64,000 nt of DNA from Eutreptiella sp. 'Long Island Sound 2002' (taxonomy: Eukaryota > Euglenozoa > Euglenophyceae > Eutreptiales > Eutreptiaceae), in assembly GCA_964036045.1 (NCBI GenBank), contig OZ038389.1:38635998-38699997 (forward strand). The letters run 5' to 3'. This document shows positions 34,222 through 55,771 of this stretch, in pieces (position 1 is the first letter of the stretch; every line of letters starts with the position of its first letter). Below the pieces are notes generated by a model that did not search any database, was not told where the DNA came from, and worked only from the letters and a program-made list of their open reading frames with translations. The position numbers and the translations under genes are program-made.

Positions 34222-34281
34222 CTCCTCCAATGTGGGTTTGACGGCTTGGCTAAGCCGTTGTCTAATGCATCCATGTGGTTA

Positions 34282-34288
34282 CATATAG
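34282..34288 (-). promoter_or_regulatory. Orphan actin-type TATA box beside LINE-2
   Basis: CTATATG on the minus strand, identical in position to the box upstream of the actin gene at 37517-37523. Here it points into LINE-2 in the sense direction, because the actin gene it should serve is absent. Function is inferred from position and conservation. Confidence 0.4.
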
Positions 34289-36051: not shown

Positions 36052-37446
<1,395 letters not shown>

Positions 37447-37516
37447 TCACCCCACCCTCCTCCGATGTGGGTTTGACGGCTGGGCTAAGCCGTTGTCTAA
37501 TGCATCCATGTGGTTA

Positions 37517-37523
37517 CATATAG
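37517..37523 (-). promoter_or_regulatory. TATA-like box of actin copy 1
   Basis: CTATATG on the minus strand, about 116 bp upstream of the shared actin ATG at 37401. The upstream block AACCACATGGATGCATTAG is conserved in all unit starts. Confidence 0.45.
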
Positions 37524-39287
37524 CATCATGTACCATTGGAGTGTCGTAGACGCAAAGATGCACTCCTCTAGTAACCCAATGAAAACTCATGCCAACATGT
37601 TGTTACCCCCAGTTGGCGTTGACATGTCAATGATGCATGAAAAAGTGAGTCATTTGGCCTGGCCCAGCTGCCGATCTACTGTGTTCCACCCTTTTGGTAT
37701 TGTCCTTAAAACCTTCCACGAGTAGACTCAAGCGGCTTTTAAAAAGGTTTGATCATTCATCCTATGAATCCATTCGTCTGTGACCACTGCCCTATGGCGC
37801 CCAAAGAAGGGGAAGAGCTCAAAGCAGCGACGCAACGCTTGCCACCCTGGGGACACCGCATGGGAGAATGAAACCACAATGCCCATGCCTGCTGCATTCT
37901 CTTTGTGTGGTACATCTTCCCGGCCACTATGCATGGTGCGGCGAAATCTCATCTTGTGGCACTCTATCTATCTATTTTACCTCTGTGCACACCTTTTTTT
38001 ATCTTTTTTTTATCAAAGAGGCCAGTACTGATTGTGCCAGGTGCCACAAGGGCAAAGGTCGGCGATTAAGTACAGCGTTTGGCAGTGCCAGGGTGAACAT
38101 ACGGGCTCGTGACTGGGCCCCCATGGTTTCTCTGTGCACACCTTTTATATCAAGCAAACTTGGGCCTCATATCATTCAACCACACCCTATTGTCTATCTT
38201 TCAAAACTCAAGGCACTTCCAATCACCGCAACCCAGGTTACCACAAACCCCATGCACTACAACCGCGCGGACAACGTTTCCTCATTTGATTGATACCAAA
38301 TCGTCTTCACTTGCATTGCGTAGATCGGGTACGTGCACAACAAATTATTTACCAACAATGCCTCGCTGTCCCAAGAGATCAGAAACATTCAACAAGACCC
38401 ACCACAAGCAATCCAAACTCTTTGCCTTGTGTCTCGAATGCTGCATAACACGGGCATTTGCTATTGTTCTTTCAACCATCCCATACTCAGATTGTGGCAT
38501 CTTTCAATGACATGACATGACGAAGGTATGAGAATATTGAGAAAAGGGTTGATGATGATGAATGAGCAACAAAAAAAAACTGGATCATCCTTCAGTTTGT
38601 CCAGTGAATCTATTTTTCTCTGCTTTTATTCATTTGTCCCTTGGGGCCTGTGGTGTTGGTTATTGAAGTATCCCTAACAAAGGAACAAGAAAACACACAA
38701 CCAAAACCTTCCCATGTCCTTGTTTCATGAGATTGTGTGCTAACCACAATGGCAATATCACCTTGGGACGCCTGCCACTTTTGCACCCTTCCACAGTTGT
38801 GCTGCACAGCAATTGCAAAAACGCTAGAATGTCCACAGAGGTCAATACTGCTGTCCACAGGGAACTACTAGTTTCCAACTTGATGGCCCTGCACGTGCAT
38901 CTGTATTGAGCACGCGCGGTGCATCAGGACACACACAGAATCAATACAATGGTTTGTACTTCGGCGGATCACCAAACAAATCGGCATGGGATGTTACATT
39001 AAGAGAGTGAATGCACAAAATGCCTTAATTGAATGAATTCGGACAGCAGAAACGCCATGTATATAATGCATATATAATGTTGAAAATAGAGATGCTCAGC
39101 AATGCTTGTCGGTGCACCACAGCGGGGTTGCGGCTAGACAAGAAGCAAAAAATGCACCATCCTGGAAACCCCGGAAATAATACAACACAAACCTTCAAAA
39201 TGCAATACTGCCGGTCAAGTGCACAAGAATGCAAGGCACAAACACCAACACACACACACACACAAACACACATGTAGAGGGAGCATC
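37524..39287. other. Actin unit 2 spacer
   Basis: Nearly the same as the unit 1 spacer. The minus ORF corresponding to 34717-34415 is shortened here by an in-frame stop (TTTTAAAAAGG near 37737). The CA repeat next to the actin stop is a few units shorter (about 39247-39271). No confirmed gene. Confidence 0.45.
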
Positions 39288-40658
39288 TTAGAAGCACTTC
39301 CGGTGAACGATGCTTGGCCCAGATTCATCATACTCTTCCTTGGAAATCCACATTTCCTGAAATGTAGACAGTGACGCCAGAATTGATCCCCCAATCCACG
39401 CACTGTACTTCCTTTCCGGTGGGGCAATGATTTTGATCTTCATGGTTGCCGGTGCCAAAGCCGAGATCTCCTTCTGCATCCGGGCTGCAACACCTGGGAA
39501 CATAGTCGTGCCTCCGGTCAATACGGTGTTGGCATACAGATCCTTCCGAATGTCCACATCGCACTTCATAATGGAATTATATGTTGTCTCATGTACACCC
39601 GCACTCTCCATCCCAATAAAGGCAGGTTGGAAGAGGGTTTCGGGGCATCTGAATCGTTCATTTCCAATTGTGATCACCTGTCCATCTGGAAGCTCATAAG
39701 ACTTTTCCAAACTACTTGAACTTGCAGCAGTCTGCATTTCTTGTTCAAAGTCAAGGGCAACGTAGCACAACTTCTCCTTGATGTCTCGGACAATTTCGCG
39801 CTCCGCAGCTGTGGTGAAAGAGTATTTCCGCTCCGTCAGAATCTTCACGAGGTAATCAGTGATATTTCGCCCGGCCAAATCAAGCCTTATGATGGCGTGT
39901 GGAAGAGCATATCCCTCATAGATGGGCACAGTGTGGCTAACACCATCACCAGAGTCCAACACAATCCCAGTGGTCCGTCCTGACGCGTACAAGGCCAATA
40001 CTGCTTGGATTGCCACATACATTGCAGGGGAGTTGAAGGTCTCAAACATGATCTGAGTCATCTTTTCCCTGTTGGCCTTCGGATTGAGGGGCGCTTCTGT
40101 AAGCAACACTGGGTGCTTTTCGGGCGCAACCCTCAGCTCATTGTAAAAGGTATGGTGCCAAATTTTTTCCATGTCGTCCCAATTGGTCACAATCCCAAAT
40201 TCGATAGGATACTTTAAAGTAAGGATGTCTCTTTTGGATTGAGCTTCATCACCCACATAGCTATCCTTCCATCTCTGAATACCATGAGCAGTAATGTTTT
40301 CTTGACGTTTGGGACGACCCACAATCGATGGGAAAACAGCTCTTGGGGCATCGTCGCCTGCAAACCCAGCCTTAGTCATCCCCGATCCATTATCAACGAC
40401 AAGGGCGGCCACATCCTCATCGTAATCGGCATTGTAACTAGAGCCAGACAAGCGGATTTCATGGCACAACTGCTTCCTCAAGGCATGCATAGAGCCATGG
40501 GAGCCCGCTGGTTGGGTCTGGCTCTGGGCTAGCATCCGAGCAATCATGAGCTCATTGGTTTGCCGAGCCAACGCCTGTGCCTGGGTATCAGCAACTTCTG
40601 GTTGACTCACGGGCTTGCGACGACAACAGAACATTGTGCTAAGCAAATTGGCAAGCAT
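39288..40658 (-). CDS. Actin, copy 2, divergent DNase-I loop
   Basis: Intronless, 456 residues from the shared ATG at 40658. The extension is like copy 1 with four more residues (NADY) before the core. The core has 378 residues because the DNase-I-binding loop is three residues longer and unrelated: [20 protein letters not shown] instead of [17 protein letters not shown]. His73, nearly invariant and usually methylated, is Phe ([13 protein letters not shown]). Other changes are [35 protein letters not shown] and [13 protein letters not shown]. Nucleotide-binding motifs ([31 protein letters not shown]) are intact, as is the KCF end with TAA. The D-loop contacts the neighbouring subunit in filaments, so this may be a functionally distinct isoform; a decaying copy is less likely since the frame is intact. 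Confidence 0.9.
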
Positions 40659-40773
40659 GTGAAACACGGATTTAGACACAAGGCCCCGAGTGACCACTGC
40701 CCCTCACCCCATCCTCCTCCACCGTGGGTTTAAAGGCTGGGCTAAGCCGTTGTCTAATGCATCCATGTGGTTA

Positions 40774-40782
40774 CATATATAT
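40774..40782 (-). promoter_or_regulatory. TATA-like box of actin copy 2
   Basis: ATATATATG on the minus strand, at the same distance (about 116 bp) upstream of the ATG as in copy 1. Homology with the other unit ends within a few bases upstream of it, so this box sits on the array boundary. Confidence 0.4.
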
Positions 40783-42784
40783 CCCTTTTATGCACTACCC
40801 TGCCTGCAGTTCAGCCAAAAAGACAATGTTTCTTAAAACACCGTGCAAATGACTTTTCAGCTCTACCCTGTCTTGCCCTGCAACTCAGACACAAAGAATA
40901 CTTTAACGTCGACTTTACTGCACACTGTCTTCTTCCTGGTCCAGCGCTAAGCGTGGGCCTTGAAAGAGGGGTCCCAGGATTCAACAGAGCTAAACAAAGG
41001 CAAGGCTACACATCAGGATATCAATACACACATGCATGCCACGCCTCAGGGTTGATGGAGGCACAGAGGCCAAAGTCAAATTTACAGATCCACTCACTGC
41101 ATGTGAATGACAGGCACACGCACGTGACACACACTGAAAACAAGACTTCTGGCGAATACAACTGGAGGCAGACGACGCTTATTTACCTTGGCGCTTGGGC
41201 GCAGCGCGGAGGTCGCCCCAGGCAGTGCTGCGTCGCCCTGACTTCACGCGTCGCCCTGACCTCACGCGCCGTGCGCGCAGTGCTGCTTCGCTCTGATTCT
41301 ACGCTCAGTGCTGCTTCGCCCTGACTTCACGCGCAGTGCTGCTTCGCCTTGACTTTACGCGCAGTGCTGCTTCGCCTTGAAGTCCCGCGCAGTGCGCGCA
41401 GGGCTGCTTCGCCCTGATTCTATGCCCATTGCTGAGGCTTGCACGTTGGTGGACGCATCACTGGAGCATGAGGCTTGCGCTTGCACAGGGAGAGGGGCTG
41501 AGGCCCGAACATACACGCCGCTCGTCAGTAGGGTGGTCATCACGCTGATCGCTGCAAGCTTCGGCGACGGGTTGCTTCATTTGGGCTTGGCGTCGGTGGA
41601 ACTTTTCTGACGCGGTTTTGAAGGGGTCTCCCAACTTCTTTTCCCCCACTCCTTTGACGTCTTTGTGTTTTCTGGATTTCACCGTGGTAGAATTCGTCAC
41701 GTTTCGCTCCAAAAATTCACGGACAAGGCACATGGTAGCACAGGAAGCACCAGCAGCAGCAAATTGGTACCGCACACGCCTATTTGTAGTTCCGCAGCTT
41801 CACTCATCAGTTCTCCCACTTCTGACAAGCTCGGCATGGCCAAAAAGTTCCATGGCCTTTGCCGCCCATGACACCACTGAGCTAAAAGCAAAATACAGAG
41901 ATGCAATGTGCATAAATCCGAAATTAATAATACAAACATGTGAAAAGCCTAAAAAATTGCTATTCTGCACGAATTGCGGTCCTGTTCTGACATGTCTGTG
42001 CCTGTGGTTTTTGAAATCCTGTGCATTTTAAAATCCTTCAGGTCATAGGCTCTGACAACGCAAAACATCGGACACGGCACAGGGGAAGTGCGCGCGCTAT
42101 GCCGCGGCAGGGGCCTGCGGGCCGTCGTTTGTTAAAACGTCGTTTGTTAATAAATTTCCCTAAGCGTAACAAACAAACGACCGTTCAGTCGCTAAACGCT
42201 CGCTTATCCCAACCCTGCATATAGCATCATGTACCATTGGAGGGTCGTAGGCGCCATACTTTCCCGACAGCAAGAACTCGTCCCGACAGCAAGAACTTTT
42301 ATTTATGCAAGCATTTCATTGAGTTAATCCAAAAATTGTTTCTGATTGCGTTTTTGTCCTCTTCTTTTCACATTTTCTTTTTATAGTTTCTGTTATGAAC
42401 ATGCTCTCCGTTATCTCAGACACACTAGCGCACCAGGCGGAAATAAAGGTAGGGACATGTAAAAAGAACGGGCGAATATGGAAAAAGCACAGATCAATGC
42501 CCATTCGTGAACCGAAGCTCCCCTAACCAAGATTTGATGTGTTTTCAATAGATTACGATTTATAGCATTCGCATCGACCAAATCTCACATGGCAAAGCAG
42601 ATTTTTCGTGAATGTCTATTTTCCTTGGTTTAGTTGTGTCTGTCATGCATTCAAGCAGCCATACACAGTGTGCTGCTATGTGAGCGTGCCCCATTGCATG
42701 GTTGAAGCGCTGTGGGTGGATTTCATCGAAATCGGCATCTGGGACAGGAACACTCGTCGCTAGAAGCAGTGGTGCGTCGCTGGT
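40783..42784. other. Intergenic spacer with minisatellite
   Basis: No gene supported. It contains a 28-bp tandem repeat (41222-41425; core GCAGTGCTGCTTCGCCYTGA), and a short copy of the actin-unit start (ATAGCATCATGTACCATTGG at about 42223). It also has an inverted pair around 42114-42181 (GTCGTTTGTTA / TAACAAACAAACGAC) and a short direct repeat TCCCGACAGCAAGAAC at about 42264 and 42283. Confidence 0.55.
41222..41425. repeat. 28-bp minisatellite
   Basis: About seven imperfect units around GCGCAGTGCTGCTTCGCC followed by TGACTTCAC. Units vary by substitutions and small indels. No coding role is evident. Confidence 0.65.
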
Positions 42785-45731
42785 ATGGCATGGGAACAAA
42801 CGGAATGGGTTTGCGTTCAGTGCGGTCGGCACCCTTCACATTGCTGGGGAAGGCCTTTGGATGACAATGAACAGGTCTACTATGCTCAGAAGCTATCACA
42901 GATGAGGCACCTTAAGAAAAGGAAAGGCCTCTGTTCGCACTGTGGCCGCCGGCGCGATGAGACCATCGCAGACCCATTCAGCCAGGAAAACTGGGACACA
43001 CAAACTCAAGAGAGAAAGCGTCGCAAATCAGAGTGCATGGATCCACCTTGCTCACAGCCTTCTCAAGACGAACCCATCTGTTCGCAGCCACTGCTGCCGG
43101 ATTATGATATGTTTGTGGGTCTCGCTGCCACTCCTGAAGCTTTCTTGCGACAGGTTGAAACATGGGCGAAAGAAACTGCTTCGAGTGAAATGCTGTTCAC
43201 ATATGCCGACTCCAAGCAGACAACATGGTTGAAGTCCTCTGTGGATTGGAAATCCAGGTACCTCTCTGCTGCGAACACTGTCAGGGCCCTGCGACGAGAT
43301 TACTTCCTGGTCAGCAAGCGTGCGACGCGTCGAAAAGGCAATGAGGAGACCAAGGAGTTGAGTGCGACTGAACAGAGTGCCCTAAGAGTCCTCGTCTAAA
43401 GGGCCATGTATGATCACCACGGCCTGAAGTGCATCAAGGTCCAGACTGGTGGCCGGCCTACGACCTTAATGCAAGTGACGAACCCTTCCAAGGACAGTGT
43501 CACTGCTCGCCAGGTCAGGAACAAAAAGGAAGCTGTCAACACCTTCGCTGAATGGACATGCCGTGGTCAAGTCCCCATGCATACTGCTGTTATGGAGAAG
43601 CTTACCAAATCTGTGCAGGATCCTGGGGTCATGCAGCTGGTGGTGCCACAGTATGGGACTCTGCAATTGAAGACGGATCTGCTGCTGTGCGACTCGCAAC
43701 TGCGCACCCTGCGACGCATCTTTGCCTCCTGGGGAGGCCACAAACTGGCCGGTTGGCGCCGGCTTGCGGCACAGGAGAAGAAGTTGAGGTATCCTCTGAA
43801 AGTCGAGTTAAAAGAGTTGGAGGTGGGTCAGGAAAAGAGCATGGAACCAGTGATGGTTGTTAGAGCACCTAGTGTTAAGAGCTGGTTGTTTCAGAGATTA
43901 GAAGTTCTGCGGTCTGCAGGTTGGTTCAGAGATCATGAGTACCTGGGTGGCCGTATAGCTGTTGTAGTTCATGCAGACTCAGGTCAAGGGTCCACAAAGG
44001 TTGCCCTCAGATTGCTGAACGTGCCCCATGACAAGGTGAGATCTGTGTCTAACCTTGACTGCATCTGTATCTTTGAAGGTAATGAGTCCTATGACAATTT
44101 AGAGGAGGCTTGTGGAGACTTGCTTAGAGAGATTCAGGCTATGCATGAAACTCTCATTCCGTTCGATGGTGCCATGAAGGAGCTTGTTTTCTTCCTGAGT
44201 TCTGACCACAAGATGCACAGCATTCTTGCAGGGCATCAAGGCCAGAGTGCAACCTTCTTCAGCATTTATGACTACCTCACCCTCAAAATGCGTGTGGCTG
44301 GTAAAGTGTGTGCCGGCGGCGTGTTGCAGAAGTATAGACACCTTGCCTCCCCTCCTGTAGAGAAAGTCCCTCCCAAACCTGCTGGAACTGTGGTGAAAGT
44401 CATAAGGCCTCCACTTCGAACTTTGTCTGAGGTCCAGGCAGATGCGGCCAGGTATGTTCAGGATGACTCAGCTCACCTAGGCCCTGCCCCTCTTGATGGA
44501 GTTGCCTACCGCAGTATTACGAAACCTCCCCTTCTCTTCCTGGGTGCCAATTACACCCTCGCAGCCCCTGTACATAACAATATAGGAGTTGTGACAGACA
44601 TTGTGCGAGAGCTAGAGGAAGAGTGCCAACATCTCGACTTGCAAGGCCTGGGCGGTGCCACTGAGGCAGTGAAAAGGCATAGAGAGAGCTGTCAGGCAGA
44701 GGTCGACAAATGCGACCAAACTATGCTACACCTTAAGGAACTCCATACCACACAGCAAGCTGTTGTCGCCACTCTGATGGACACTGTGGTCCGCGTGCGT
44801 AACCGTGTGGCTGACGCTGTGTCCTCATCCGAGTCCGAATCCTCTGACCAGGAGGGAGATGCTAGACCGAATGCACGACAGGCACACAGGGAGGCTGAGG
44901 GTATGGGGTGGTTGCCCACTCGTCGACAACAGACGCGCGGTCGACGGCGTCGATTGGCCACACGCGAAGCTGCGCGACAGTTGCGTCTGCGTGAGAGCGA
45001 GGAAGAGCTGTCGACGGCACAAGGAGAGCTGGCGGTGACCGAACAGAAGTTGCACAAGGCCGAGAAACTGTTAATTACTGCGAAGCACAATCTGAAGAAG
45101 GTTCGAGGTGATAGAATGCGTCTCCTAGAGAAGGCGTTGCTGGTGTTAGGTTTACGAAAGACGTGCTACTTTGGGCACGCATACATTGGTAAACACTGCA
45201 AAAGACTATGCGAATCTGAGGTCGCAGTGGCCATCACTGCCCCTCTGTTGTTTGGCTTCTCTCGCACTGATCGTCGTGAGCGCACTGATGCGTGGGTTCG
45301 TGCATGTCAAAGGCGTGAGGCGTGGGTCCTTAGATTGACCAAGTGGGGTGCTGTGCAGCAGCTTTTGGGAGGTAGCTACGACTTTGCTGCCATGCCCCAC
45401 CTGCTGCCTCAGCTCGTTGTCCGTGCAGCTAGCTTTGCAGGATTTGTTGCATCCCATTTCCCTTCCCATCGGCCCACTCCAAAAGAACTGTTTGCTGTCA
45501 GCCAAGGTGTGTATTTTGTGTAAAAGAAATCTGTTTTCAGGCTTGGCGGATGAAGAGCCAATGGAGGCACAGCACCTTGATTGGCTGCGCCGATGGGCCA
45601 GGTGGAAACATTGCAGGGACAGGAAGCAAGCTGTGGAGAAATGCCTGACCCATTTGCACGTTAGAAACAATGCCATATGCCTCATCCAAAGCTTTGTTGG
45701 TCCTGGACCTGATGCTAATGCTGGTGGATGA
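42785..45731 (+). CDS. Putative DDE-type transposase-like protein with introns
   Basis: Model: exons 42785-43356, 43402-45506 and 45541-45731. The N-terminus has two CxxC pairs (WVCVQCGRHPSHCWG, LCSHCGRRRDE), a likely zinc ribbon. A TAA at 43397 lies in the same frame as both halves; it falls inside a possible 45-nt GT-AG intron (43362 is not used; GTTGAG at 43357 to AAAG at 43401) whose removal keeps frame. The core shows VVVHADSGQGSTKVALRLLN and, about 90 residues later, LSSDHKMHSILAGHQGQSA. The C-terminal LGLRKTCYFGHAYIGKHCKR follows after an acidic, coiled-coil linker. This order resembles an unnamed transposon-derived family seen in invertebrates (from memory). A 34-nt intron (45507-45540) joins the last exon, which ends with TGA. 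Confidence 0.6.
45507..45540 (+). other. 34-nt intron in transposase-like gene
   Basis: CAAG|GTGTGTATTTTG ... TCTGTTTTCAG|GC. Splicing joins a Gly codon and extends the ORF by 63 codons (LADEEPMEAQHLDWLRRWAR ...) to TGA at 45729-45731. Unspliced, the frame stops at TAA within the intron. The length matches another intron at 46308. Confidence 0.6.
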
Positions 45732-46240
45732 TGTGTGTTCACATGTTGCATTGATTGTCCCGTTGCTGTGCCTTCTAATTTTGATTGCCTGTTTGCATGC
45801 CTGAAGCCTTATGTGCCTTTGTTTCTCAGATAGGTGTTTGGCAGAGGTGGGTTGAATATTGAGGTACCCCTGATTTTTGCCCTTGACCCTGCACCACCCA
45901 AATGAGCCCACAGGGTGAGTACCTCGGTTGGGGGAATAGGGGAGGAAGTGTCTTTGGGGTCCCCTAGACCCATAGACCTTATTTAGACCTTGTCCCCTAT
46001 TAAGGACTTTTTTTCCTCCCAACCAAGGGGCGGTGGGGTAGTGGACAAGGCCGCAAGAAGAAGAAACAAGAAAGAAAAGGTACTTATGTGTGTGTGTGTG
46101 TGTGTGTGTACAACGGGTGTACAACGCCCGCACAGCAGAGCGCAGCACCATTCAGCACCGTACGGCACAGCACAGCACAATTCAGCACCGCACGGCACAG
46201 CACAGCACAACTCAGCACCCCACTAATCTTCAATCTGCAG
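45732..46240. other. Spacer with GT microsatellite and 30-bp repeat
   Basis: It holds a GT run (about 46086-46110) and just over two 30-bp units (ATTCAGCACCGTACGGCACA..., about 46150-46218). The end, CTAATCTTCAATCTGCAG, looks like a branch point plus 3' splice site for the exon at 46241. A lysine-rich possible exon lies near 46040-46080 (before GTACTT). Not resolved further. Confidence 0.4.
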
Positions 46241-46626
46241 CGACACGCTGAAGCAAATGACGGAGCAGTTTGAGAACACACAAACACAACTGGTTGATCA
46301 AGTCCAGGTAATTCACTTTGCCAAAGTGCACTGCTTTTTCAGTTTGCCGCTTCCTCTCTGTCAAACAATGAATCACTATCTCAGACTATTATGAACAGTC
46401 TGTTGACGCAGTTTGACGATCTGAAGACTTTAACGGCTAATGTTGTCGACGCTGCTTGCGCAGAACTGAATGTATGTCGCAGAGGGTAGCATCGTCGAGG
46501 GCTTACACGTGCTTCGCACTTGTGCATTTTCAGGATTTGCACAAGGAAAACGTTGAGAACGATTTGCAAGTTTGCTGCACACGAGAGGACACACGGGGCC
46601 TGCTCGACGCCATCGCCAACGGTTGA
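46241..46626 (+). CDS. Spliced gene fragment encoding a coiled coil (unknown protein)
   Basis: Three exons in one frame: 46241-46307, 46343-46471 and 46534-46626, split by introns of 35 nt (GTAATT...TTTTTCAG) and 62 nt (GTATGT...TTTTCAG). The product includes DTLKQMTEQFENTQTQLVDQ, then LSQTIMNSLLTQFDDLKTLT and DLHKENVENDLQVCCTRED, ending LLDAIANG-TGA, or splicing onward from a GTTGAG at 46621. Heptad-like spacing suggests a coiled coil; motor or cytoskeletal tail proteins look like this, but no family is proven. The 5' part is not located. The intron-bounded open frames make it a real gene or a recent relic. Confidence 0.5.
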
Positions 46627-47000
46627 GACTCTTGCGCATCACTGTGATCTTGCACTGCTGACTGCGCCTATGCTGCCTGAAAGCTTAACGATGACGAACA
46701 TTTCGTAGTGCCAGGCACGCGCGTGGCTGTGTGTGCCTGTGCTGCCTTGGGACAACCGAGAGCCTTGGACTTTATGAGCTTTGTGGACTTCTTTGGTTGC
46801 TGTGGGGGGAATTGCATCCTTTGTTCTGTCGGATGATCGTGTGGAGGTTTCGGGATTTTTTCCAGCTTTCTCTATCTGGCACTGGTGTTCAAGCACACGG
46901 GAAGGGGTTTACGATGTGCCGAAATTTGGACAGTGCCTGGGGGCCGGTGTGGTATCGTAATAAGAGGAGCACTTGGTTGCTCTGAAGTGGGTGTGCAACG

Positions 47001-47465
47001 CAAACTCACCTTTTCGTGGTGATTGTTTGGAAACGCACCCACAAGGTAAGTTGAGTGTAGCACAATCGAACTTCAACCACCCTCTTTTCTCTGAGTGTTT
47101 GTTTGTTGGACCTTTGAGCGTGCACAAAGAAGCAGTGATGTTTCATGGCCCAGCCAGCACCATGAAGCATATTCAAGGCCAAAAGATGTCTCTCTCCTTT
47201 GTTTCAGGTTGCATGGTGCCCTGATGGTCAAGGCAAGTACCTGTTTTGCCAAGAGGGCCCAGTGTTCCTGATGTATTTCTATGCGTGCAACAGTACAGTT
47301 TGGGTAAAAATACCTTGGGTAAAGCTTATGCCCCAGTGTTCCAAACGGTGGGTAATCTCTCCCGCTGACGATATCTCAATCTTTGTAACTTTTCAGGCCC
47401 ACCGCCAAGACCCTGTCTTAAATGCATGGGATTCCACACACTGCCCAGTGGGGGAGCAAATGTAA
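47001..47465 (+). CDS. Possible spliced 3' exons of an unknown gene
   Basis: Exons about 47001-47045, 47208-47303 and 47397-47465, joined across GTAAGT...TTTCAG (162 nt) and GTAAAA...TTTTCAG (93 nt). Translation: THLFVVIVWKRTHK, then VAWCPDGQGKYLFCQEGPV, then AHRQDPVLNAWDSTHCPVG, stop TAA. The VAWCPDG piece is reminiscent of a beta-propeller blade, but one blade proves nothing. The relation to the preceding coiled-coil fragment is unknown; 46690-46840 also contains an open stretch (RALDFMSFVDFFGCC) after a TTTCGTAG splice-like site. Confidence 0.3.
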
Positions 47466-48408
47466 GAGGTGGTGTTACAATGCTGACCACCATTTTTGAT
47501 GACCAACATTAGGTGTAACATAGATCTCCACCCTTGGATAGATCATTTTTCATCAGGCCCAGGGGGCGTTGTAGCATGGGGTGGGTGGGTGGTAGTCCAA
47601 ATAATGTTCAGTTCAGTGTTCAAGGTTTGGAAATTATTCTCCCAAATACGCTAAGTGGATCATTGAAAGAACAGTGCAAGGCATAGATAAAAAAAAGTGT
47701 AGCATGTTTCAAAATGTTTTACATGCAAAGTAGAAGAAAATCAATGTAGAGTTTCAAAGATGATACCATGGAATGGTAGCAAAAAAAACATTGCAACAGC
47801 TTGCAAAATATTTTACGTGCAAAGTCTAGAAAAATAATCCATGGTTTTTGTAAAACACCAATTCTACAGGTACGTGACCAGGAGTAGGATTTGTATGAAA
47901 TTAGGAGGCAATACTAGTGGTCGGGGAGCGAAAAAGGGTTAAATTTCGGTTGCAAAACTTGCCTCATGGAGGTAGGGGGCAAATTTAAAGGTCTAAAATT
48001 GGTCATTCCGTTGTAGCACAAGCGTCATCACAAGCACCATGAATAGTGTCAGCACTCACATCATTAGGTTTGCACGTGTTGCAGAGCTGAGCGCAGACTC
48101 TGTATCATTGATAGAGAACCCTCTTTGCAGGAATCTACATTGCGATGAACCACTTTTGACACAAAAGGTGCAGTGGACGGGAAACAAGCCAAGCAATGTG
48201 TGACACAATGACGTCGGTGTTTTTCACATGTGATGTATGCCACAGCAACATTTTGGCACGTTTTGTGCCACATTATGGGCTTGGGCTGGGAATCCAAAGT
48301 TTCCTAAATGGTGGTGTGCAGTCTGTTTGCTCATGATAGTTTCGGGTGATTTGGGGTAGGAATGACAAGTCCCACCTAATGTCCGATGTCCCACCATAAG
48401 AGGTTGCA
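47466..48408. other. AT-rich intergenic stretch, no gene seen
   Basis: No ORF with convincing composition. Short A-runs and dispersed fragments. The sequence just before 48409 (AAGAGGTTGCAG) resembles a 3' splice site for the next coding fragment. Confidence 0.5.
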
Positions 48409-49201
48409 GTGAACCGAGTGTATGAAGAAAGTGAGGTAGTGTACCTGCTGGCTTTATGCACGCGCATGGGCCTGGATCAATGGGCAACTCTGGCCAACAA
48501 TGCAGCCCCATGGCGCACGCCAACTGCCTTGGGCTCAATCATTGTGAACAGCGAGCACGGCAGCTGGTTGGTGACGGAGCGCGGCAAGAGGATTTGGGCA
48601 AAGTATTGCGGGGTGAATACGGCCGATTGGCTGGCTGCTGTCAGGAAGCTACGGGAAGAGGTGTTGAAAAAGTACACGAAGTACGACACCCCGGCTTGGA
48701 ACATCAAGTTTTCGTCCTATTTCTTGAACATGGCCGAGATGTCTGCCAAGGACCTTGATGAGGCTCAGCGAGTGCGGGCACGTAGCTCCAGTGCACCACC
48801 TCCAGGGCCTTTGCATGGTACTGAAGCAACGGCCCGACGAAACGGAGAAGGGACGGTTGCAACGGGGCTTGGGGTGGCCCTGTTGGTAGTTTCCAACGCG
48901 CTGGGTGTTGGTCATGCAATGCCAGAGTGCTTGAGCAATCCAATGGTATGCCATTCCGTTGGAAGTGCACGGCGACCTGGGCACATCCCTACTCCTTCGC
49001 ATTCTTGGACGAGTACGTGCATTCTCCAACATCAAGAAGTTTGGCCCTTTTCATCGAGTTAAGAGCCGAGGTGGATCATACGAATATAATGAGTTGACCT
49101 ACTTTTTCTTGGCGGCGTGTGTACTACATGATTGTGAGATTCAGTTTGATTTGCAAAATGGTTGCGAGCCTACAGCTGAGAGGGCATGTAAATGTGCATA
49201 G
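48409..49201 (+). pseudogene. Unknown gene fragment with one frame change
   Basis: The first frame (48409 to about 48840) reads EVVYLLALCTRMGLDQWATL, SIIVNSEHGSWLVTERGKRI, WLAAVRKLREEVLKKYTKYD, FSSYFLNMAEMSAKDLDEAQ. It then continues in another frame from about 48940 to 49201: QWYAIPLEVHGDLGTSLLLR, ILGRVRAFSNIKKFGPFHRV, NELTYFFLAACVLHDCEIQF, stop TAG. The join may be an intron or a 1-nt indel; no clear consensus sites were found. Composition is protein-like with mixed hydrophobic and charged residues. No family recognised. An upstream exon is possible because 48409 follows a splice-like CAG. Confidence 0.4.
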
Positions 49202-49404
49202 TAGATCACCAAGGCTGTGAGGAATTTATGATTGTCAAACAATGCAAATGATTAGACCATCGATCTGCGATTTGCATCATTGCTTTGCACGCCTTTGGGG
49301 AGGTTTGCTAAGGCGAGATCTGACAATTTGGCATGAACAAAGAACATTTTTGTTACTATCGAACTGCCTGTTTGAGGTGTTTGTGGCTTTCCATCGATAG
49401 GGTA

Positions 49405-49918
49405 ACACATTGGGCGACAGGGAGGCGACAGGGAGGCGATAGGGAGGCGACAGGAAGGCGACAGGCAAGCGATAGGCAAGCGACAGCCTAGCGACAGGAG
49501 AGCGACAGGTTACCACGTTGGGCGACAGGGAGGCGACAGGGAGGCGACAGGGAGGCAACAGGGAGGCGGCAGGAAGACGACAGGCAAGCAAGGAGGGCGA
49601 CGGGGAGGCAACAGGAAATAGCGAGAGGAGAGCGAAAGGACGGAAGGGCAAGAGAGCGACAGGAGAGCAACAGGAAGGCGCTAGGCAAAAATTAGCATGG
49701 CGACAGGAAACAACAGGAAGCGACAGGAAGCGACAGGATAGCGACAGGAGGGCGGCAGGAAAGCGACAGGGAAGCGACAGGGGAGCGACAGGGGAGCGAC
49801 AGGGGAGCGAGAGGAGAGCGACATGCAAGCGACAGGGGAGCGACAGGGGGCTAAAAGTGCCAAAACAGCGACAGGGGGCCGACAGGGAGGCGACGAGATG
49901 GCGACAGGAGAGCGAGGT
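49405..49918. repeat. GCGACAGG minisatellite
   Basis: About 500 bp of 10-11-bp units (GCGACAGGGAG, GCGACAGGAGA and variants), almost pure purine/C on the plus strand with no T-rich units. Any reading frame through it is repeat-driven. It abuts the truncated left end of the third actin unit. Confidence 0.85.
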
Positions 49919-49931
49919 GGCCCGAATCTAA

Positions 49932-53347
<3,416 letters not shown>

Positions 53348-55771
53348 CAGCCCAAACTGAAATTAACTCAAAAATCCCCAAAATTGATCCCTCGTCCGGA
53401 CCCGCCAGAGGTAGGGACGAGGCAACTGACCCTATGCCCTTTGAGTACGAACCCCCTGGAGCCCTCACCCAACCTGGTTCCCTCTGAGGTCCCGGCATCA
53501 GGGCAACACGGATGAGTCATGTGGGGTCATGATGCCAAAATCACCAAAATTGGCGTCATTCCCAAGCGTGGCTCGCCCGGCCAAGGTAAGGCCAATGGCT
53601 CACAGGGTAGGAGGCAGGACCTAGGACTCATATCTGAGTGTACAACTTGCATTTAGGTCGGTGCTCCCTATGGGCTTAGAGAAATGGGGCCGCCAATTGA
53701 CCACACGGAAGGGGGAAATTGGGGTCCCAAAATTGGGTCATTTTGGCTGCTTGAAATGAGCCAAAATTCGGTGTGCTCCAAATAGTATATCTCCACGCCG
53801 GCTTGGAGATCGGATCCGCCATTCCATACGCAATCTGCCGGGAGTCCAATCAGGACTCCCATGCGCTTGGCTCTCAAAGATCTCCATGCCACTCGGCGTG
53901 GTGACGATCCCAATTGGGTCCACAAATGTCAAAATTGCAAAATTGCCCACACTCACTTTGGGCTAGCGCCTTAACGAAGGTGGCTCCGCTTCGCCCACGT
54001 GGTGTGTGGACCATGGGGACCATTACCCATAACACCCATGACATATATGGTCCATTGGTCCATGCGTCCGGCGTGCACGAAGGTTAGAACATGGGGCACG
54101 GCGGGCAGCAAAAGTGGAAAATTGCTCAAAATGGCCAAAAATGCGCACACTCATGGTTGGGGCAAATGAGGCACATGCCCGACTCGGACCGGAGTGTGCC
54201 ATAGGATTGGTATCAAGTCATATTGGTCCAACATATCTTTTGGGCGTCGCCCAACTCCTCCGATATTGGGAATGGCAGGGTCGCCAAGTGAGCCCATGAT
54301 TTGGGATAGTCCCAAATCGCCAACATGGCGGCCACGGTATGCCAAGCCTAAGAGGAGTTATTCGCCGGGTCCAAGATATGTTGGCTACCGAAGTATGTAC
54401 CCTCATAACATACTTGGGTCATGATGTCAATTGAGCGCAACGTTGAGATACACGGTCGCCACTTGACATCATGACGGGCCAAAAACGGCAAAATTGGCAC
54501 AAAGACAAACCAAAGTGCCTTGAAAGGCGCACAATTATATTATAATATCTTTGGCCTGGATCGTGCAATCAACTAATCCTTCTAAACACAATGACTTGAC
54601 ACCAATGACCTTCGATCCCACATATGTGCTCCACTTGGGGCGCCTTGAAAGGTTACGAGCGCTGCTTCCCAAGTGGGCACATGAAAATATGGAAACTTCC
54701 AAAATACACACCTTGCTCCCAACGCATCGCTTCGGGTTCACCACACAAGCTTCCCTTCACGAAGGTTAGGCTTGTAATTGATCGTAGGGAGTATGGAGAA
54801 GGGGCTTGCACAATATGAGGTCCATTGGCGGGCTTGTCTTGGAGCAATGGGCCCGCCAAATGGGCACGCAACACAACACATGGCACATACCACATATTGC
54901 CCAAAAAGGCAGCTCCCACCACGATATGTCATGCCCCTCCAAGGGCATACCTTTGTGTCAATCGCTCATAGGAACTCAAGGAGAGTTCCTATGCAACACC
55001 AACACTTGCGCGCTATACTCGAAAGTTATCTTAACGCATGCAATGCCATGGCCAAAGAGTTATAACGCAAACTCTACCCTCTTGACCATGATCCATTACA
55101 CTAGCGCGCACGTGTGGAAGCGCAAGGCATATAATGCTTCCTAAATTACGTCGGGAGTATTGTGAATACATCCCACGTTTCCTTATCGTAAATCCTCGCA
55201 AGCAACACGAGATATGACCTTCACAAGTGGCCTCACGAATCAACTTTATTTTGCCCATATCTTTACGACAAATGGGGGGCAAGGGAAAAGGAAAGTTGAT
55301 TCGTGCATAGGGAAGCACGTAGGTCCACTCGAAAGAGGTCAAATCAAGTGCGGGGATGTCGAAGTCGAAAATCCGATTTCGACATCCTGAAAAATTCGGA
55401 TTAAGGTTGCGAGTATTAATTATGAAAATTGCGGAAGCATCCATGCAGTTCCTGGCGACTTTGGAGCCTTCGTGACGGATAGCGTTAAAATTTCCATTAT
55501 AAACAGTTAAACTGGCGGTTACGGTAAAGTCGCGATCCAACCGCCAGCAGTCAAAACAGTGAGTATCAGAACGGAAGCATAAAAATTGACGGAAACAATA
55601 TGAAAGTAAAACCCTGTTGATTCCTGATATTCTGATACACAAATCTCCGCTGGCGGTGCCTCGGTTGCCGATGCGGGGCTTCACGGCACGGAACACGCCG
55701 TGCATGGGGTTAGTGGACCGGAGACCGGTTGTATGCCGCAACCTAGCCATGGGGTTCTGGGTACCGCTTCA
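53348..55771 (-). repeat. 3' LTR of Gyp-2 (outer end uncertain)
   Basis: On the minus strand it starts TGAAGCGGTACCC at 55771, right after a polypurine tract (CTAAGGAGGGGGG). It shares blocks with the Gyp-1 LTR in the same order: CGCCAGCGGAGATTT, TATCAGGAATCAACAGGGTT, GTCAAGAGGGTAGA, GGAGGGGCATG. Beyond about 54000 the match fades; the LTR may run to 52303, including the duplicated segment. It keeps the GATGTCGAA hairpin near 55350-55385. No genes inside. Confidence 0.7.

What the first reader, a model, noticed from the sequence alone, without database searches (positions are those of the whole stretch)
39288..40658. Actin copy 2 has a replaced, longer DNase-I loop and Phe at position 73
Seen: copies 1 and 2 are almost identical over the rest of the gene and the spacer. 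In copy 2 the loop between Arg37 and Tyr53 is unrelated and three residues longer ([20 protein letters not shown]), and His73 is Phe. Known: this loop makes longitudinal filament contacts and binds DNase I and cofilin; His73 is nearly invariant. Inference: a swapped cassette, by gene conversion or selection, giving an isoform with altered polymerisation.
Basis: partly seen in the sequence, partly recalled or inferred. Interest (0 to 1): 0.75.

Follow-up and report, generated by a model that had tools for sequence, protein, structure and literature searches.

The report
Actin copy with a remodelled loop
One copy in a small, partly dead family of duplicated actin genes has a heavily rewritten, longer loop at the part of actin that links filament subunits; it is real and unusual, but the whole family has escaped actin's normal constraint, so a working special-purpose actin is possible and not shown.

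Summary
Copy 2 (39288-40697, minus strand) is an open actin frame. Loop residues 39-49 are rewritten with net +9 nt, and His73 is Phe. The loop DNA was found once in the 2.28 Gb host assembly.

The context changes the interpretation. Copies lie on at least three scaffolds: four full-length open frames, the rest seen broken or partial. Copy 1 is no clean reference (R37G, Q41E, P70A, D187G, R196W). The loop is not unrelated: it keeps 16 of 30 bases in frame and shares G42E and G46A with copy 3, a gene split by a 38,184-bp insertion. Patch exchange between copies is shown; no loop donor was found.

Outside copy 2's private loop changes the family shows 89 replacement and 29 silent changes (omega about 1.2, interval 0.8-1.9): normal actin constraint is gone. 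Yet copy 2's private replacements elsewhere are mostly residues other actins carry (3 of 12 unseen, against 42 of 55 in the other copies, p=0.001), so residual selection is not excluded. The host also has two intron-split actins, about 78% and 68% identical to the family. Expression was not testable.

The parts
39288..40697 (-). actin copy 2, open frame of 469 aa (GTG at 40697; first in-frame ATG at 40658; MFCC ATG 40634-40632)
   Evidence: PF00022 E=4.9e-146
40425..40697 (-). N-terminal extension of copy 2 (codons 1-91), present before the actin core in the three other full-length copies and in 5' parts of broken ones
40269..40310 (-). rewritten D-loop segment (actin residues 39-49, net +9 nt), found once in the assembly
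40197..40199 (-). codon 73, TTT (Phe) instead of CAT (His)
36052..37440 (-). actin copy 1, open frame of 462 aa, itself altered at R37G, Q41E, P70A, D187G, R196W
51621..52302 (-). 3' half of actin copy 3; its 5' half lies about 38.2 kb away at C12:38726475-38727194 of the host assembly
37441..39287 (.). spacer between copies 1 and 2; the 3' spacers of the two units differ at 30 of 1828 aligned bases
34222..34287 (.). remnant of the next unit (5' flank only); array truncated here
40698..40779 (-). 5' flank of copy 2 with TATATGTAACC; homology to the other copies stops at 40779
40780..49929 (.). 9.15 kb without homology to the unit, between copy 2 and the copy-3 unit, with an ORF carrying DUF1280 (43406-45523)

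Best explanation
Copy 2 is one member of a dispersed, intronless, N-terminally extended actin family in a large eukaryotic genome. The family was amplified in tandem and to other scaffolds, exchanges short patches between copies (shown), and is no longer under normal actin constraint (shown), with several copies frameshifted, truncated or split (shown). Inferred: the copy-2 loop was remodelled locally inside this family rather than imported as a cassette. An early version with G42E and G46A is shared with copy 3, and one or a few complex local mutations then added the other changes and the 9 nt. Inferred: copy 2 has kept its frame, perhaps under weak residual selection. If the protein is made, altered glycines, lost hydrophobic tip residues, an insertion and the loss of His73 predict changed D-loop contacts, cofilin binding and phosphate release, possibly a non-canonical actin that does not join ordinary filaments.
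For: Family inventory with broken copies. N 89: S 29 outside copy 2's private loop events, omega 1.18 with interval 0.77-1.86. Recombination: 219 of 741 informative site pairs incompatible, at least 10 intervals, 86 of 5000 permutations as clustered. Copy-3 loop RPRHQEVMVAVGQKDRY shares E42 and A46 with copy 2, and V190/K197 as well. Loop DNA found once in the assembly. In-frame similarity 16 of 30. Events at residues 37-53 are in excess in the other copies too (9 of 28 replacements not private to copy 2, 3.2 expected, p=0.003; 7 of 26 when those shared with copy 2 are dropped, p=0.024). The double mutation G42A/G46A slows actin dynamics and inhibits cofilin binding (PMC7277580, abstract).
Against: Copy 2's private replacements outside the loop are mostly residues seen in other actins (3 of 12 unseen against 42 of 55 distinct ones in the seven other copies, p=0.001), which simple decay does not predict. 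Its private N:S is 26:3 (one-sided p=0.023 with the loop; 14:2 without). Changes present in at least one intact copy are N:S 48:10 (two-sided p=0.079) against 41:19 for those only in broken copies (difference p=0.088). No nonsense change among 118 substitutions (3.3% expected each, p=0.019). No template for the loop was found in the window. A slide of one codon aligns the loops about as well. A complex local mutation is an inference with no direct trace.
Confidence: 0.5

Rival explanations
1. Copy 2 is a working non-canonical actin. The loop and the other changes were selected, giving an isoform with its own filament contacts, placed by the N-terminal extension, while copy 1 and the fragments decay.
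For: Open frame of 469 codons with net +9 nt in the loop; mild private replacements elsewhere (3 of 12 unseen against 42 of 55); private N:S 26:3; replacement divergence between copies 1 and 2 above spacer divergence (3.4% against 1.6%, p=0.003). Precedent: Arp53D, a young actin paralog with a 40-aa N-terminal extension, positive selection by MK test (p=0.04), and the extension necessary and sufficient for localisation (PMC8291977, passages).
Against: Family-wide omega about 1. N:S of copy 2's private changes without the loop is 14:2, too few to stand above neutral. The replacement excess over spacer is absent for pairs with copy 3 (p=0.36 and 0.37). Of copy 2's five changes shared with other copies, four are residues unseen in other actins. 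No expression evidence available. Several tests were tried and the counts are small. For Arp53D itself the codon models found no recurrent selection.
Confidence: 0.3
2. The loop was pasted in by ectopic gene conversion from a divergent actin or actin-related gene.
For: Sharp edges: no silent change between the loop and residue 63. Patch exchange is shown in the family. The loop keeps Q41, G48 and in-frame similarity, as a true actin loop would.
Against: Only copy 2 carries the loop DNA at up to 3 mismatches in the assembly. Of ten distant actin loci examined, none of the six with the loop visible has it. E42 and A46 are already present in copy 3. A tract of about 40 nt without flanking silent changes would be unusually short. 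The assembly may be incomplete.
Confidence: 0.12
3. Assembly or polishing artefact in a near-identical array.
For: Near-identical tandem copies are error-prone. No independent record with this loop was seen in the 120 hits listed by each of three protein searches, although at 90% clustering copy 2 could be hidden behind P0001 or P0002.
Against: The loop and its insertion are in frame, flanked by correct sequence, and share E42/A46 with copy 3. The C7:92.93 copy's protein equals P0001 but for the first letter; P0001 comes from an ENA contig of 72,547 bases, so that copy at least stands in another record.
Confidence: 0.05

Closest known systems
Conventional cytoplasmic actin (human beta-actin, PDB chain 8rtt_A)
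   Same: Family core consensus 95.5% identical to human beta-actin and 98.4% to the second actin domain of a Tubulanus polymorphus gene model; PF00022 over the full core
   Different: Copy 2 lacks the conserved D-loop and His73; the four full-length copies carry an N-terminal extension of 87-91 codons in frame; each of eight copies examined has residues unseen in the other actins compared
Drosophila Arp53D (non-canonical actin-related protein)
   Same: Actin-derived gene with an N-terminal extension and fast protein change; its actin domain was judged too divergent to co-polymerise (PMC8291977, passages)
   Different: Arp53D is kept for at least 65 million years with known expression; here many copies are broken, the extension was covered only by P0001 and P0002 in the list, and expression is unknown
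Dictyostelium discoideum actinome (Act8 group, divergent isoforms, filactin, actin pseudogenes)
   Same: Many duplicated actins, clustered genes, divergent isoforms and seven potential pseudogenes; filactin is an actin with a long N-terminal extension (PMC2441452, passages)
   Different: The 17 Act8-group genes encode identical protein and are reported active; here the open copies differ in protein and show no purifying signal

Membership tests
Actin superfamily (PF00022) | full-length match above the gathering score | tested here: met
   486.9 bits against cut-off 27, residues 94-469
Conventional actin | conserved D-loop (residues 39-49) | tested here: not met
   8 of 11 loop positions carry a residue seen in none of the 264-269 actins covering them, plus three extra residues; with looser matching, four of these (40, 42, 44, 49) were seen once or twice
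Conventional actin | His73 | tested here: not met
   Phe; His in 99.6% of 272
Conventional actin | strong purifying selection (replacement changes far below neutral) | tested here: not met
   family omega 1.18, interval 0.77-1.86
Conventional actin | polymerises into ordinary filaments | not testable with these tools
   needs protein; both structure predictions were too poor to use
Pseudogene | disrupted frame | tested here: not met
   copies 1 and 2, C12:59.04 and C7:92.93 are open; C7:91.70, C4:19.97 and copy 3 are broken
Pseudogene | neutral pattern of change | tested here: inconclusive
   family as a whole neutral in N:S; copy 2's private replacements outside the loop milder than in other copies
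Non-canonical actin paralog (Arp53D-like) | retention across species with expression and localisation by the N-terminal extension | not testable with these tools
   no transcriptome or named relative at hand; in the list (120 of 7984 hits) only P0001 and P0002 cover the extension

The most novel reading that the evidence does not exclude
An animal-type intronless actin, unlike the host's own intron-split actins, was acquired (or survives as a relict), gained an N-terminal extension beginning MFCCRRK that could anchor it to membrane, multiplied in tandem, and is now being diversified at the D-loop by selection and patch exchange, copy 2 being the most advanced isoform.
Probability: 0.15. Interest if true: 0.75.

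Novelty: new variant of a known kind. Interest (0 to 1): 0.45.

Why it matters
The D-loop is one of the most constrained parts of one of the most constrained eukaryotic proteins. A natural actin with an open frame, a remodelled D-loop, loss of His73 and three extra residues, beside a partly changed relative in the same array, gives a ready-made series for testing what the loop must be for filament assembly, and how an actin copy leaves the conventional role. If it proves untranslated, it still shows patch exchange acting on actin copies, loop changes included.

Tried and rejected
Compensated frameshift of the standard loop as the origin: the other two frames of the standard loop do not read as copy 2's loop, and slides of 0 and 3 bases align best. 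Template elsewhere in the window: longest exact match 12 bases outside the two actin copies. Donor in the genome: none at up to 3 mismatches. Host intron-split actins and other distant actin loci as source of the copy-2 residues: no shared set. A listed actin of another species sharing copy-2 residues: at most 4 of 23 marker residues in one protein; one of these, P0078, has K39, R40 and W49, but its loop is otherwise different. Structure prediction: two AlphaFold jobs with small alignments gave mean pLDDT 39 and 33 and were not used. Splicing out the extension with the GTGAGT and TCTAG motifs: read by eye, with no tool, it gives a stop at once in copies 1 and 2. Relatives in viral contigs (copy-2 residues 22-206) and genome contigs (the extension and the first core residues): none confirmed. 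Host identity: not established. The Euglena gracilis assembly was considered and does not fit (largest chromosome 121.4 Mb, PMC11252322 passages; here C1 is 201 Mb). Searches for lineage markers (PF05149, RF01960, PF00504) and for the extension alone did not complete. Paper searches found nothing; one listed five papers that I did not use. A first neutral simulation used a cruder ancestor and one codon (354) was counted there as a double change in copy 2; I rely instead.

Full report
The observation. On the minus strand copy 2 reads as one open frame from 40697 to 39288. Its loop reads [20 protein letters not shown] against [17 protein letters not shown] in copy 1, and codon 73 is TTT against CAT. 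The two tandem units are 96.5% identical over 3.3 kb. The loop holds 15.3 replacement and 0.7 silent differences plus net +9 nt in a stretch where the rest of the gene predicts one or two. In a search of the 2.28 Gb assembly that contains the window, the 42-base loop core was found once, in copy 2 itself, with up to 3 mismatches allowed.

The family. The protein search of the assembly gave 64 matches, exon pieces and distant actins included. Besides copies 1 and 2, full-length open copies lie at C12:59.04 Mb and C7:92.93 Mb. Broken or partial ones include C7:91.70 (three single-base indels and a 15-nt insertion), C4:19.97 (one inserted base, truncated), C7:91.79, 91.77, 93.195, 93.586 and 88.03, and copy 3. 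Copy 3 is split at codon 149 by 38,184 bp, with CAGTGG at both edges, as a transposition would leave. The protein of the C7:92.93 copy equals P0001 but for the first letter, Val in my plain translation of GTG and Met in P0001; P0001 comes from an ENA contig of 72,547 bases. P0002, from a JGI contig of 1,815 bases, is a further variant. The four full-length copies share an in-frame extension before the actin core, 87-91 codons counted from the GTG.

The other loops. Of the six other copies that carry the whole stretch, all six have a loop of standard length: copy 1 (R37G, Q41E), copy 3 (G42E, G46A, M47V, S52R), C12:59.04 and C7:92.93 (standard, Y53I just after it), C7:91.70 (Q41E, M44L) and C4:19.97 (standard, with its inserted base just before). 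A seventh, C7:93.59, is broken inside the loop. Copy 3 thus shares two of copy 2's changes, and further downstream also M190V and G197K. The region 37-53 holds more events than expected in the other copies: 9 of 28 replacements not private to copy 2 (3.2 expected, p=0.003) and 7 of 26 absent from copy 2 (p=0.024); silent events 2 of 6 (p=0.14). I cannot separate a mutational hot spot from selection.

Exchange between copies. Over five copies (c1, c2, c3, C12:59.04, C7:92.93; C7:91.70 and the fragments left out) 39 informative two-state sites give 219 incompatible pairs of 741 and at least 10 recombination intervals; 86 of 5000 shuffles of site order are as clustered. Copy 3 matches copy 1 at some sites and copy 2 at others. 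Patch exchange within the family is therefore shown; import of copy 2's loop from outside is not.

Constraint. Counting each derived base once over eight copies and leaving out 13 events private to copy 2 inside residues 39-49, there are 118 substitutions: 89 replacement, 29 silent, 0 nonsense, against a neutral replacement fraction of 0.723. This is omega 1.18, interval 0.77-1.86. For an actin that is extraordinary: normal constraint has gone. Changes present in at least one of the four intact copies give 48:10 (two-sided p=0.079), those only in broken copies 41:19; the difference has p=0.088. The absence of nonsense changes has p=0.019 under neutrality and points the other way, towards frames kept open for part of their history. 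The extension gives 13:5, neutral as well, so its coding status is not established by this test.

Signals for copy 2. Of its 12 private replaced codons outside the loop, 3 carry a residue unseen in the 287 actins compared, against 42 of 55 distinct ones in the seven other copies (p=0.001), and 16 of 19 in the other three intact copies (p=0.002). Of five changes that copy 2 shares with other copies, four are unseen (two of them in the loop). The 287 are database hits that include imperfect gene models, and positions are covered unevenly. Private N:S in copy 2 is 26:3 with the loop (one-sided p=0.023) and 14:2 without it. Replacement divergence exceeds spacer divergence for copies 1 and 2 (3.4% against 1.6%, p=0.003) but not for either pair with copy 3 (p=0.36, 0.37). 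Copy 1 has lost R37, P70, D187 and R196, with 11 of 12 changed residues unseen. These counts are small and several tests were run.

Origin. The family core consensus is 98.4% identical to the second actin domain of a Tubulanus polymorphus gene model (P0009), 97.3% to a metagenome actin (P0293) and 95.5% to human beta-actin, but 77.5% and 67.9% to two intron-split actins of the same assembly on C2 and C1, whose exons I joined by hand with approximate edges. Piece by piece, those two genes are 45-88% and 47-80% identical to the core, with intron sequence read into one C2 match. Among the 64 matches no second gene appeared with exons near 90% throughout; the search scores only the best candidates and the assembly may be incomplete. 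The family is thus not a recent copy of those two genes. It may be foreign, or a relict of a lost conventional actin. The host was not identified.

Mechanism. Shown: duplication, patch exchange, loss of constraint, insertion into copy 3, a loop found only in copy 2. Inferred: the loop changed first at residues 42 and 46 and later by one or a few complex local mutations. Predicted from published work: the double mutation G42A/G46A restricts the D-loop, slows both filament ends and inhibits cofilin binding (PMC7277580, abstract), and His73 takes part in nucleotide exchange and phosphate release (PMC9499316, abstract; SETD3 as its methyltransferase, search listing only). D-loop sequence is also suggested to decide cofilin binding in Leishmania actin (PMC9200798, passages). 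A protein with both sites altered should not behave as ordinary actin, whether or not it is used.

Comparison. It could work like the non-canonical actins exemplified by Arp53D. It is a member of the actin superfamily but fails three tested features of a conventional actin. Copy 2 is not a pseudogene by frame, and the evidence on selection is mixed.

Noticed in passing
window 40425-40634 (-): The in-frame N-terminal extension, from its second in-frame ATG, begins [11 protein letters not shown], two cysteines followed by basic residues, which recalls (from memory, no call) palmitoylated membrane anchors such as that of GAP-43.
   Followed up: partly
C7:92.93 Mb and C12:59.04 Mb copies, actin codons 52-53 and 193-194: AGCTAT is replaced by AGTATT (Y53I) and CTGACG by CTAAAC (T194N): clustered multi-base changes that keep the frame, as in copy 2's loop on a smaller scale.
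   Followed up: no
window about 38003-38130: The spacer of the copy-2 unit holds a roughly 130-base dispersed repeat with 24 further matches of 84-90% identity listed (40 of 859 candidates were scored), SINE-like by size and spread.
   Followed up: no
window 43406-45523 (+): A 705-aa ORF between copies 2 and 3 carries a DUF1280 domain (E=8e-15), perhaps part of a mobile element.
   Followed up: no
window 52303-53348: Two tandem copies of a 525-base sequence, 94% identical, start at the point where copy 3 is interrupted.
   Followed up: partly
C2:28.3866-28.3884 Mb and C1:188.185-188.192 Mb (L036, L035): Two intron-split host actins with unusual D-loops (RPKTESAMMGTAKKD and TPRTENVMMGTAKKD), about 77.5% and 67.9% identical to the family core.
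   Followed up: partly
window 40698-40779: Copy 2's 5' flank loses homology just upstream of TATATGTAACC, 82 bases before codon 1, while four of five other copies compared share more upstream sequence, so copy 2 may have a different promoter context.
   Followed up: no
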